Assembly: GCA_013298865.1 (NCBI GenBank)
Contig: JAAFJL010000003.1
Span: forward strand, 1 to 64,000
Source of the DNA: Cytophagales bacterium
GTDB lineage: Bacteria > Bacteroidota > Bacteroidia > Cytophagales > Spirosomataceae
Direction of reading: 5' to 3'
DNA: 64,000 nt
Made by a program: the position numbers and the translations under genes. Position 1 is the first letter of the stretch; each line of letters begins with the position of its first letter. Of this stretch, positions 43,471-63,748 are shown piece after piece. The notes below the pieces were generated by a model. It saw only the letters and a program-made list of their open reading frames with translations, was not told the DNA's origin and did not search any database.

Positions 43471-44121
43471 TTACTCAGCAGTTTCAGTTGATGCTTCCGC
43501 TACTGGAGCTTCAACAATTTCCGCTACAGCTTCAACTGCCTCAACTACTGGAGCTTCAACAACTTCTGCTACAGCTTCAACTGCCTCTGCTACTGGAGCT
43601 TCAACAACTTCTGCTACTGCTTCAACCGCCTCTGCTACTGGAGCTTCCTCAACTTCTTCTTCTACTTGATTTTTCTTAGCAATTGCTGCTGCACGAGTTT
43701 CATTAACCTTAGTTTCATTTGCCAAACGTGCATTTCTGTCAGCTTTTTCTTTAGAAGATAAACCTTCTACTTTACTTGCTACTTTACCGTCTTTAACCGT
43801 CTTCCAACCTTCAAATTTCGAGTCAGCTATTTCCTGAGAAATAGCACCTTTATTTACACCTACTTGTAAGTGTTTCTTCAATAAAACACCTTTGTAAGAT
43901 AATATTGCACGAGCAGTATCAGTTGGTTGAGCCCCGTTCATTACCCATTTCAACGCTTGATTTTCGTTGATAGAAATTGTAGCAGGGTTTGTATTTGGAT
44001 TATAAGTTCCTAATTTCTCGATGAAACGACCGTCACGTGGAGCTCTTGAGTCTGCCACAACGATGTCGTACATTGCTAATTTTTTACGTCCACGACGTGC
44101 TAATCTGATTTTTACAGCCAT
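43471..44121 (-). CDS. rpsP: 30S ribosomal protein S16 with long acidic repeat tail
   Basis: The first 80 residues are normal S16 ([28 protein letters not shown]), which binds 16S rRNA and helps assemble the 30S platform. A charged extension follows (about 85-155), then tandem 15-residue repeats [15 protein letters not shown] at 159-173, 174-188, 189-203 and a partial copy to 210. Total length is 216 versus about 80-90 in most bacteria. Extended S16 is common in Bacteroidota, but the Glu/Ala/Val tandem part appears freshly expanded, as the DNA repeats of 45 bases are nearly identical. The tail is acidic, unlike the RNA-binding core. Confidence 0.95.
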
Positions 44122-44240: not shown

Positions 44241-44274
44241 AAAATACCCACAAGATTTGCCTTGTGGGTATTTT
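44241..44274 (-). terminator. Terminator of rnpB
   Basis: AAAATACCCACAAG (44241-44254) pairs with CTTGTGGGTATTTT (44261-44274) over a 6-base loop. It lies directly downstream of the rnpB 3' end on the minus strand, upstream of the rpsP leader. Confidence 0.88.
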
Positions 44275-44277
44275 GTT

Positions 44278-44738
44278 ATTAAGCGATAAGCCGGGTTCTG
44301 TCAGAAAATTCATCAAATTACTTTGAATCAAATTCGTCTTATCATTTATCTCGACGCACCGTCACCGATACGCTCTATCAACCTACCCACTGACATCAGG
44401 CGAGCAGCCCTCTTTTTAGTTATCAGTTATCAAGAAACAGTTATCAGTTTTGCGGATGACCGTTTAACTGTTTACTGCTTACTGTTTACTGATAACTGTC
44501 TCGTCAGCCTATTTGGTTTTTCAACTCATGAGGTTTACAGCTGCCCTCGTTGTCACCAACGAGGCGGTAGGCTCTTACTCTACCTTTTCACCCTTACCTA
44601 AAAATAGGCGGTAATTTTCTGTTGCACTGGCTGTCACGGATTCGTCACCAAATACGTGCCTTCCCGTTAGGAAGCATGATGCTCTGTGTTGCCCAGACTT
44701 TCCTCCCTGATTGCTCAAGGCGATAAGATACTTAACTG
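44278..44738 (-). ncRNA. rnpB: RNase P RNA, type A, with internal repeat insertion
   Basis: This is the catalytic RNA that trims tRNA 5' leaders. On the minus strand the 5' part has GGAGGAAAGTCTGGGC (P4 and core), then AGGTAAGGGTGAAAAGGTAG and AGAGCCTACCGC, GGCAGCTGTAAACC, the conserved AACCAAATAGG, GGGTAGG (tRNA CCA-binding loop L15), AGATAAATGA and the 3' ACAGAACCCGGCTTATCG. P1 can form between GTTAAG at 44736-44731 and CTTAAT at 44283-44278. Between AACCAAATAGG and GGGTAGG, where E. coli has the short P15-P17 arm, there is an extra inverted heptamer array (44417-44498). Ends are approximate. Confidence 0.95.
44417..44498. repeat. Inverted heptamer array inserted in rnpB
   Basis: On the plus strand, five words TAGTTAT, CAGTTAT, CAAGAAA, CAGTTAT, CAGTTTT run in phase from 44417 to 44451; after a 12-base centre, TTAACTG, TTTACTG, CTTACTG, TTTACTG, ATAACTG run in phase from 44464 to 44498. 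ACAGTTATCAGT (44437-44448) and ACTGATAACTGT (44488-44499) are a perfect 12-bp inverted repeat, so the RNA would gain a long hairpin. The words match the free arrays at 16486 and 63582. Confidence 0.9.
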
Positions 44739-44909: not shown

Positions 44910-44979
44910 CGAAAAACGAACAACGAACAGCGAAAAACGAAAATCGCACAACGAGTAACGAAAATCGAACAACGAAAAA
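44910..44979. repeat. Ten-unit heptamer array (CGAAAAA type)
   Basis: Exactly ten in-phase 7-base words run from 44910 to 44979: CGAAAAA, CGAACAA, CGAACAG, CGAAAAA, CGAAAAT, CGCACAA, CGAGTAA, CGAAAAT, CGAACAA, CGAAAAA. The last word ends at the base before the stop codon (CTA on plus strand) of the DUF4403 gene. The same words occur in the right arm of the array at 18343-18405. Confidence 0.92.
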
Positions 44980-46401
44980 CTACAATCCGTCAATTTGAAG
45001 GTTCATTTTTCCTTTGGCAAAAATTACTGCTATGATTGAGTTGGGAGTTAAATATACTTTATCAGGAGAAAGGCTCTCGATTTTTCCGTTCAATGTAACG
45101 CCTTTTGATACTTTGTTATTCGTCAAACTTGATTGAACTTGTCGCTTGATTTCGTCAATATTATTACCAATCGGGAAGGTCATAGCTTCTTTCATATTTT
45201 TCGTAAAAGCACCTTGGAACATCCAATTGGCAGTTTTTACCAATAAATTTTTGCTTTCTAAATCATAATCAAAGCCTTCCAAATAAATAGCTTGTTTTAC
45301 GGGGTCGTAGGTAGGAACGCCCTTGAAGAAAATATTTCCCTGAATACTCCCTTTCAGACCAGACTTAATCACCATTTTATCTTGTTGTCCATAAATATCA
45401 ATGCTTGTTACTTGTACATTATATTTCCCCTCTTTGAAAGAAAAATTTTGACCCACCAAAGTATCTGCTGTCAATTTTGATGCTTGGTCATGCGGAATTT
45501 CTGCAATAATTGCTACCTGAAAATCATCTGGAACAGTTGTAACTACCTTTAAATCAGGCACATCATTTACCATTTGCACTGTTGGTTTTGCTCCTGTAAC
45601 TGTTTCTGTATAGGCTTTTATGGCGATGGTAGCTTTTACCTTATTATTGGCTGTAACCAATGGTGTCATTTGTAATTCTACGGGAGAAACTTTCAACCAA
45701 GTTTTGTATTTTTCAGACATTAAATAAGGCTGCATGGCGGTATTCCAAGCCTGAATCACGTATTTCTTGATTTCTACATTTTTACGAACAGCTTCATCCA
45801 AAGATTTTAAAATCACATCTTGTTTAGAATTTAGGGCTTTTTCGACCAAACCAGCCACTGAAATTTCTACACCAGCTAAACGAATAGTTGGTTTCTTTAC
45901 CCATTCATAACCAATCGGAAAAGATTGTACATTGGCTTGCCAATTGGGTGCAATTGAAAATTTTGAACCAAATTTTACGTTAAAATCAAAGGTCAATTCT
46001 TGCGGAGGAATCGACATTCCCATTACTTTATAACCAACTTTTGCCCAAACTTTTAGTGGAACATTAAAGGTGAAAGTCTCATTCTGAGCAGACACTGTAA
46101 TGGTTTCACGCTTCCAGACTTTACACATAAAATTGTCGTAATTATTGTCGTCCATGCTATTATCTTCAAAAAGAAGGTCTTTCAAATTAGCATTAATTTG
46201 GCGTTCAACATCTGGCATTGTAATCTCAAAAGGCACACTGATAGTCGAAAGATGTTTTTCCACTTGCTTGATTTTATATTGATACGATTCTTGTGGTGCT
46301 TTCGGGTCGGTAGTAGTTGTAGCTACGGTTGCAGAACTCGAACAGCTTTGTAACCAGATAGTTAAAGGGAACAGAATGACTAAGGATGCTATTTTTTTCA
46401 T
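44980..46401 (-). CDS. DUF4403 family lipoprotein
   Basis: This 473-residue protein has a lipoprotein signal (MKKIASLVILFPLTIWLQSC, lipid Cys20). The body follows the DUF4403 pattern: STISVPFEITMPDVERQINANL near the start, a repeated TULIP-like beta/helix layout, and a final VKTANWMFQGAFTKNMKEAM region. TULIP-like proteins bind lipids, so an envelope lipid role is possible (inference). The frame is open to 46476, overlapping the HAD stop by 4 bases, but that extension is encoded by AT-rich repeat words, and the signal peptide supports 46401. Confidence 0.88.
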   Translation of the reverse strand: MKKIASLVILFPLTIWLQSCSSSATVATTTTDPKAPQESYQYKIKQVEKHLSTISVPFEITMPDVERQINANLKDLLFEDNSMDDNNYDNFMCKVWKRETITVSAQNETFTFNVPLKVWAKVGYKVMGMSIPPQELTFDFNVKFGSKFSIAPNWQANVQSFPIGYEWVKKPTIRLAGVEISVAGLVEKALNSKQDVILKSLDEAVRKNVEIKKYVIQAWNTAMQPYLMSEKYKTWLKVSPVELQMTPLVTANNKVKATIAIKAYTETVTGAKPTVQMVNDVPDLKVVTTVPDDFQVAIIAEIPHDQASKLTADTLVGQNFSFKEGKYNVQVTSIDIYGQQDKMVIKSGLKGSIQGNIFFKGVPTYDPVKQAIYLEGFDYDLESKNLLVKTANWMFQGAFTKNMKEAMTFPIGNNIDEIKRQVQSSLTNNKVSKGVTLNGKIESLSPDKVYLTPNSIIAVIFAKGKMNLQIDGL

Positions 46402-63382: not shown

Positions 63383-63394
63383 GTTTATTTATTT

Positions 63395-63575
63395 GTGATT
63401 TGGTGAGTTTGTGATTTAGTGATTTGCGATTTAGTGATTTGTGATTTAGTGATTTGTGATTTAGTGATTTGCGATTTAGTGATTTGCGATTTAGTGATTT
63501 GTGAATTAGTGATTTGTGAATTAGTGATTTGGTGAGTTTGTGATTGAGTGATTTGTGAATTAGTGATTTGTGTTT
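63395..63575. repeat. GTGATTTGTGATTTA tandem repeat
   Basis: About a dozen units alternate GATTTAGT and GATTTGT/GATTTGC (8 and 7 bases, 15-base period), unidirectional. The spacer after fabG is filled by this and the next array. Translation of the reverse strand gives a repeated KSLNHKSLNR peptide, which is an artefact. Confidence 0.88.
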
Positions 63576-63581
63576 TATAAG

Positions 63582-63686
63582 TATATTGTTCACTGATAAC
63601 TGCTAACTGTTCACTGCTAATTGTTCACTGCTAATTGTTCACTGCTAATTGTTCACTGCTAACTGCTAACTGACAACTGTTCACTG
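63582..63686. repeat. Long heptamer array (TTCACTG / CTAATTG)
   Basis: Fifteen in-phase 7-base words follow each other: TATATTG, TTCACTG, ATAACTG, CTAACTG, TTCACTG, CTAATTG and so on to TTCACTG at 63680-63686. Word consensus is NNANTG-like with fixed TG at positions 6-7. The family is shared with 16486 and the rnpB insertion. It ends about 60 bases before the next gene. Confidence 0.9.
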
Positions 63687-63748
63687 CTAATCCGTTCACC
63701 ATGAACCGTAAGTAACCGTAGAAAATTTTACCCTTTTATCATTACGAA

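What the first reader, a model, noticed from the sequence alone, without database searches (positions are those of the whole stretch)
44417..44498. Inverted heptamer array inserted inside RNase P RNA
The rnpB gene is clear from its conserved ends and core. In the P15-P17 arm, between the conserved AACCAAATAGG and GGGTAGG, there is an 82-base insert made of five 7-base words and five reverse-complement words, with a perfect 12-bp inverted repeat. The same words form free spacer arrays at 16486 and 63582. So a repeat family of this genome has entered an essential ribozyme and should be present in the mature RNA as a long hairpin. Heterocystous cyanobacteria are known to carry heptameric STRR sequences in rnpB; a similar case in Bacteroidota would be convergent and, as far as I know, undescribed.
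Basis: partly seen in the sequence, partly recalled or inferred. Interest (0 to 1): 0.87.

Follow-up and report, generated by a model that had tools for sequence, protein, structure and literature searches.

The report
Genomic repeats grow hairpins on RNase P
In this bacterium and many of its relatives, short 7- or 8-letter repeats that litter the spaces between genes have also taken over outer stems of the RNA enzyme that trims tRNAs, adding long hairpins that change almost completely between close relatives while the catalytic core stays the same.

Summary
The only rnpB found in this genome (44736-44271, minus strand; RF00010, 233.5 bits) carries an 82-nt inverted heptamer array (CAGTNNN x5, spacer, NNNACTG-type x5). 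It lies in the P16/P17 junction and is predicted to fold as a self-contained hairpin (-28.8 kcal/mol, z -7.2). P15, P16, P17, P6 and the GGGUAGG motif are intact. The words belong to a genome-wide intergenic family: 195 four-word matches against 0 in the control.

It is not a one-off. Relatives carry short hairpins or nothing at this spot. Nine other sampled genomes have inverted heptad arrays there, built from different words. About 30 carry long P12 stems, most of 7- or 8-nt units, and three carry P19 arrays. The segment from the GGAAAGTC motif to P11 has none. Two relatives with 99.5% identical cores have unrelated arrays. Two of three cyanobacterial rnpBs checked carry heptad-like P12 arrays.

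Best reading: genomic palindromic repeat arrays repeatedly seed, replace and lengthen peripheral helices of RNase P RNA, tolerated because the core is untouched. This is a new variant of a known kind (cyanobacterial STRR in rnpB; Nostoc trnL-intron P6b). RNA processing, activity and mechanism of spread are untested.

The parts
44271..44736 (-). rnpB, type A RNase P RNA gene carrying the array
   Evidence: RF00010 233.5 bits, model 1-367; only copy found in the assembly
44417..44498 (-). 82-nt inverted heptamer array in the P16/P17 junction: five CAGTNNN words, spacer, five NNNACTG-type words (two degenerate)
   Evidence: CM insertion; fold -28.8 kcal/mol, z -7.2; pairs with itself, not with the rest (28.0 vs 0.2 expected pairs)
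44503..44508 (-). P16 5' strand GCUGAC, just before the array
   Evidence: CM alignment
44398..44410 (-). P17 stem-loop GGGC-UGCUC-GCCU, just after the array
   Evidence: CM alignment
44389..44394 (-). P16 3' strand GUCAGU
   Evidence: CM alignment
44382..44388 (-). conserved GGGUAGG (contains the GGU that in type A RNA binds the tRNA 3' end; function from established knowledge)
   Evidence: CM alignment
44680..44684 (-). GAGCA, complementary to the P17 loop UGCUC (P6 pseudoknot)
   Evidence: read from the sequence; P6 pairing from established knowledge of type A RNA
16486..16521 (+). weak intergenic array of the same word family
   Evidence: TRF period 7
63582..63699 (+). strong intergenic array of the same word family (one arm)
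   Evidence: TRF period 14; 15 successive heptads
20623..20696 (.). intergenic inverted array of ATTG words, CAAT arm left and ATTG arm right

Best explanation
The insert is one copy of a genome-wide family of palindromic tandem-heptamer arrays. It occupies the P16/P17 junction of RNase P RNA, a spot where relatives have only a short, variable hairpin. It is transcribed as part of the ribozyme and folds back on itself into an extended peripheral helix. It is tolerated because P15, P16, P17, P6 and the catalytic core are untouched. Across the family the same process has acted repeatedly: 7- or 8-nt units, in the cases tested the genome's own dispersed repeats, seed, replace and lengthen three dispensable stems (P12, J16/17, P19), and arrays turn over far faster than the core. 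Shown: presence, placement, family membership, recurrence, turnover and polarity. Inferred: that the RNA is transcribed whole, folds as predicted and is active, and that the effect is near neutral. Not resolved: whether arrays arrive by recombination or gene conversion with other arrays, by slippage from a short hairpin, or by a dedicated element.
For: Placement between P16 and P17 with flanking helices intact. Same words genome-wide, 195 vs 0 in the control. 22 of 22 two-armed arrays in the genome have the same arm order as the rnpB insert. Short hairpin or none at the same spot in neighbours. Inverted heptad arrays at J16/17 in nine other sampled genomes, P12 and P19 arrays in others, none between the GGAAAGTC motif and P11. 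Period peaks at 7 and 8 only in long segments. At least 5 changes of the J16/17 array label on the rnpB-core tree, 3 forced by starred branches. G440 and G446: 221/222 core identity, arrays no more alike than shuffled. Octad units are also dispersed inverted repeats in their genomes.
Against: No RNA data: transcription as one piece, fold and activity are unproven. Array-rich relatives such as G411 and G435 have no rnpB array, and G444 has one without any four-word ACTG array elsewhere, so genome load alone does not predict it. The sample was biased to long or low-scoring rnpB, so counts are not frequencies. Several of the most informative genomes are draft MAGs.
Confidence: 0.8

Rival explanations
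1. The hairpin is cut in the cell (for example by RNase III), so mature RNase P RNA is a two-piece ribozyme held together by P15/P16/P6, as with intervening sequences in some 23S rRNAs.
For: Several arrays make long near-perfect stems: 18 bp in G404 and G516, about 24 bp in G444, very stable P12 stems in G254. RNase III cutting of such stems is established knowledge.
Against: In the window's own RNA the longest unbroken helix is 10 bp, with internal loops. No RNA data were available.
Confidence: 0.15
2. The array helix has been recruited for a function of RNase P: extra stability, a protein site, or pairing with arrays in mRNAs.
For: Both arms change together, so the hairpin persists while the words change. 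The outer 18-bp stem of G404 and G516 is unchanged.
Against: Intergenic arrays are palindromic too, and the energy per nt of the rnpB insert (-0.35) lies inside their range of -0.15 to -0.47. Close relatives lack any array, and arrays are replaced at near-identical cores.
Confidence: 0.08
3. The array grew in place by slippage from a short hairpin that happened to hold CAGT/ACTG, independent of the genomic family.
For: G005 has a short CAGTAA-GAAA-TTACTG hairpin at this spot with no four-word ACTG array in its genome. Nostoc P6b is described as varying by 7-nt repeat gains and losses (PMC4476775).
Against: The words match the genomic family. Whole-array replacement between G440 and G446 is hard to reach by slippage. 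Arm order is the same as in the intergenic arrays.
Confidence: 0.2
4. Assembly artefact or pseudogene: the insert is a misjoin, or a working rnpB lies elsewhere.
For: Draft genome of 302 contigs, 94% complete; repeats are where assemblies fail.
Against: The next genomic match to the insert is 94% over 35 nt; the flanks complete one gene with all helices and no other rnpB was found; G404 and G516 share an orthologous array; genomes in one or two contigs show P12 arrays.
Confidence: 0.03

Closest known systems
STRR heptamer repeats in rnpB of heterocyst-forming cyanobacteria (Vioque 1997, PMID 9254706; cited in PMC2858038, original not held)
   Same: Heptamer arrays inside a type A RNase P RNA; of three cyanobacterial rnpB genes read here, two have heptad-like arrays in P12 (L312, L313).
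   Different: Bacteroidota (Cytophagales) instead of cyanobacteria; the window's array is in J16/17; relatives use P12, J16/17 and P19, many word families and octamers. One cyanobacterial rnpB read here has no array (L311).
Nostoc tRNA-Leu(UAA) group I intron P6b, built from one of two 7-nt motifs (PMC4476775)
   Same: Degenerate heptamers form both sides of a peripheral stem of a ribozyme, vary in 7-nt steps, and different motifs replace each other repeatedly.
   Different: Different ribozyme, phylum and motifs; here the units are also dispersed intergenic repeats of the same genome and an essential single-copy ribozyme is affected.
TAACTGA intergenic heptamer repeats (MacGregor 2015, PMC4679880)
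   Same: Same heptamer words (TAACTGA and variants), intergenic, known in Beggiatoaceae, cyanobacteria and five Bacteroidetes.
   Different: That paper reports mainly direct repeats upstream of start codons in Beggiatoaceae and mentions neither rnpB nor RNase P. Here arrays are often inverted, abut gene starts and ends alike and enter an RNA gene.

Membership tests
Type A bacterial RNase P RNA (RF00010) | full-length match to the covariance model above the gathering score | tested here: met
   233.5 bits against 100, model positions 1-367
Type A bacterial RNase P RNA (RF00010) | P15, P16, P17, P6 and GGGUAGG present | tested here: met
   CM alignment; P6 complementarity GAGCA/UGCUC read from the sequence
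Type A bacterial RNase P RNA (RF00010) | cleaves pre-tRNA | not testable with these tools
   needs an enzyme assay
Heptamer (TAACTGA-type) dispersed repeat family | tandem heptamers dispersed over the genome, mainly between genes | tested here: met
   195 four-word matches vs 0 in the control; fetched arrays abut gene ends
Heptamer (TAACTGA-type) dispersed repeat family | placement just upstream of start codons (as in Beggiatoaceae) | tested here: not met
   array arms face stops 37 times and starts 21 times; the source paper itself says placement varies between lineages
Cyanobacterial STRR-in-rnpB | tandem heptamers inside rnpB | tested here: met
Cyanobacterial STRR-in-rnpB | same helix as in cyanobacteria | tested here: not met
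   two cyanobacterial rnpB genes have the array in P12; the window's is in J16/17, though relatives use P12 as well
Cyanobacterial STRR-in-rnpB | host is a heterocyst-forming cyanobacterium | tested here: not met
   G460 of the window's family group matches a record titled uncultured Cytophagaceae bacterium
Cyanobacterial STRR-in-rnpB | common descent of the repeats with the cyanobacterial ones | not tested
   7-nt words carry too little signal and the host lineages are distant

The most novel reading that the evidence does not exclude
Inverted 7/8-mer arrays with strict polarity are an unrecognised class of spreading palindromic element in Bacteroidota (possibly hairpin- or ssDNA-based), able to enter and replace peripheral helices of an essential ribozyme, making RNase P RNA a recorder of their movement.
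Probability: 0.22. Interest if true: 0.8.

Novelty: new variant of a known kind. Interest (0 to 1): 0.6.

Why it matters
It shows that an essential, single-copy ribozyme repeatedly absorbs a genome's dispersed repeats at defined outer helices, and that these parts can be swapped almost completely while the core barely changes. That gives a natural series for testing which parts of RNase P are dispensable. It also gives a tractable system for asking how 7/8-mer palindromic arrays arise and move, a question that remains open for the cyanobacterial STRRs. Practically, rnpB annotation, rnpB-based typing and rnpB reference assays in this family could be confounded by arrays.

Tried and rejected
Pattern scans for CAAATAGG + CAGT words across 85k named genomes and 390 order genomes found only the window's rnpB. 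They were too strict (the arrays of G423 and G404 fail them), so those negatives are not used. A viral-contig scan was uninformative. Start-codon association of arrays as in Beggiatoaceae was tested and not seen. The idea that the rnpB array is more hairpin-like than intergenic ones was not supported: its energy per nt (-0.35) lies inside the intergenic range of -0.15 to -0.47. The Vioque 1997 paper is not held. G460, a member of the same family group, has its rnpB at the same place as G453, the genome of the record 'uncultured Cytophagaceae bacterium Loclat_bin-13011', so the window is placed in that family-level group of Cytophagales.

Full report
Observation. The minus-strand gene at 44736-44271 is a full-length type A RNase P RNA (RF00010, 233.5 bits, gathering 100) and the only one found in its 5.69 Mb assembly. 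P16 closes with GUCAGU and P17 is GGGC-UGCUC-GCCU. The P17 loop UGCUC can still pair with GAGCA at 44680-44684 (P6), and GGGUAGG is present. The insert reads CAGTTAT CAGTAAA CAGTAAG CAGTAAA CAGTTAA, a spacer, then AAACTG ATAACTG TTTCTTG ATAACTG ATAACTA; two of the 3' words are degenerate. Alone it folds to -28.8 kcal/mol, z = -7.2. In a full-length fold it makes 28.0 expected pairs with itself and 0.2 with the rest. Plain MFE folding is not a reliable guide to the RNase P core: only 57 of 119 core pairs are the same with and without the insert. Core integrity therefore rests on the covariance model, not on this fold.

Repeat family. The pattern (ACTGNNN)x4 occurs 195 times in the genome and never in the reversed control; ATTG versions add 64 against 20. 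The insert has many partial matches elsewhere, the best 94% over 35 nt, so a misjoin through an identical repeat is unlikely. In 40 array loci fetched, all 22 with two arms have the CAGT arm on the left and the ACTG arm on the right, which is also the order in rnpB. Arms face gene stops (37) and starts (21) alike, so the start-codon placement described for Beggiatoaceae (PMC4679880) is not seen. In 121 genomes of the family, array load varies from 0 to over 300.

Relatives. At the same spot, close relatives carry short hairpins of 4-8 bp (for example G036, G005, G429, G434, G032) or nothing (G411, G435). Dissecting about 110 rnpB genes with conserved anchors shows J16/17 arms of about 34-73 nt in nearly all. 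Arms of 100 nt or more occur only in G000, G052, G404, G516, G444, G423, G430, G440, G446 and G417, and all ten are inverted heptad arrays of ACTG, ATTG or TTAA-type words. The covariance model places the arrays of G404, G423, G417, G444 and G052 in the same junction. About 30 genomes have P12 stems of 80-220 nt. Most are heptads (ACTG, ATTA, TTAGGGG or GGGATTA words) or octads (AATGAGTG...CACTCATT), with exceptions such as G410 and G519. P19 carries arrays in G404, G430 and G434. The segment from the GGAAAGTC motif to P11 stays at 72-81 nt (one mis-anchored exception) and carries none. Counting 4-mers that recur at a fixed distance, long J16/17 arms give 67 at distance 7 and at most 11 at any other distance tested. 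Long P12 stems give 178 at 7 and 278 at 8, others at most 37. Long P19 gives 73 at 7, others at most 10. Short J16/17, P12 and P19 segments have no such peak. Most arrays fold well below dinucleotide shuffles (z -2.4 to -18; G410 and G519 do not). The octad unit is itself dispersed in many of these genomes, again in inverted pairs of one polarity. The sample favoured long or low-scoring rnpB genes, so these counts are not frequencies.

Turnover. On a tree of rnpB cores with the variable parts removed, the window groups with G430, G417, G446 and G440 (support 86), all with J16/17 arrays of differing words. The label needs at least 5 changes, 3 of them forced by well-supported branches; P12 needs 15 and P19 needs 2. 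G440 and G446 differ at 1 of 222 core positions, yet their arrays are no more alike than shuffled sequence (40 matches; shuffled mean 38.2, maximum 44). G430 and G417 (96.8% core identity) behave similarly. G404 and G516 share an orthologous array with an unchanged 18-bp outer stem. Arrays are therefore inherited for a while and then replaced wholesale. G440 and G446 are draft MAGs, so this pair deserves a check with better assemblies.

Mechanism. The best-supported account is that palindromic tandem arrays of the genome's own 7/8-mers enter, replace and lengthen dispensable outer helices of RNase P RNA. They survive there because they fold on themselves and leave the core alone. Placement, family, recurrence and turnover are shown. 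Transcription as one RNA, activity and near-neutrality are inferred. Because intergenic arrays are palindromic as well, hairpin formation in rnpB is not by itself evidence of selection on the RNA. The route of entry (gene conversion or recombination between arrays, slippage, or a mobile hairpin) is open. Whole-array replacement and strict polarity argue against slippage alone.

Comparison with the known. Heptamer STRRs in rnpB of heterocystous cyanobacteria are known (Vioque 1997, cited in PMC2858038; original not held). Of three cyanobacterial rnpB genes read here, two (L312, L313) have heptad-like arrays in P12 and one (L311) has none. The Nostoc trnL intron builds P6b from one of two 7-nt motifs and changes in 7-nt steps (PMC4476775). 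TAACTGA repeats in Bacteroidetes are known (PMC4679880), but that paper does not mention RNase P. My searches of the paper library turned up no report of repeat arrays in RNase P RNA of Bacteroidota; the library lacks most subscription journals. What is added here is the phylum, the J16/17 and P19 sites, the variety of units including octamers, and the pace of replacement.

Noticed in passing
window 44910-44987 and 18343-18406: Tandem arrays of another heptamer family (CGAAAAN / CGAACAN); the first lies about 170 bp upstream of rnpB.
   Followed up: no
window 63391-63577: A 15-nt tandem array (ATTTGTGATTTAGTG, 12.8 copies) directly beside the heptad array at 63582.
   Followed up: no
window 43492-43657 (ORF 43471-44121, minus): The gene next to rnpB looks like ribosomal protein S16 with a C-terminal extension made of 45-bp in-frame repeats ([12 protein letters not shown]-like).
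   Followed up: no
G000 array loci L086-L125; octad loci in G008, G263, G018, G539: Strict polarity: 22 of 22 two-armed ACTG arrays are CAGT-left/ACTG-right, and listed octad pairs are AATGAG-left/CTCATT-right. No explanation found.
   Followed up: partly
L335 (G417), L330 (G423), L337 (G430): Some rnpB genes hold two or three different arrays at once; the G417 gene spans 635 nt by the covariance model.
   Followed up: partly
L030 (G005) J16/17: A short hairpin CAGTAA-GAAA-TTACTG carries the heptad end words although that genome has no four-word ACTG array; possible seed state.
   Followed up: partly
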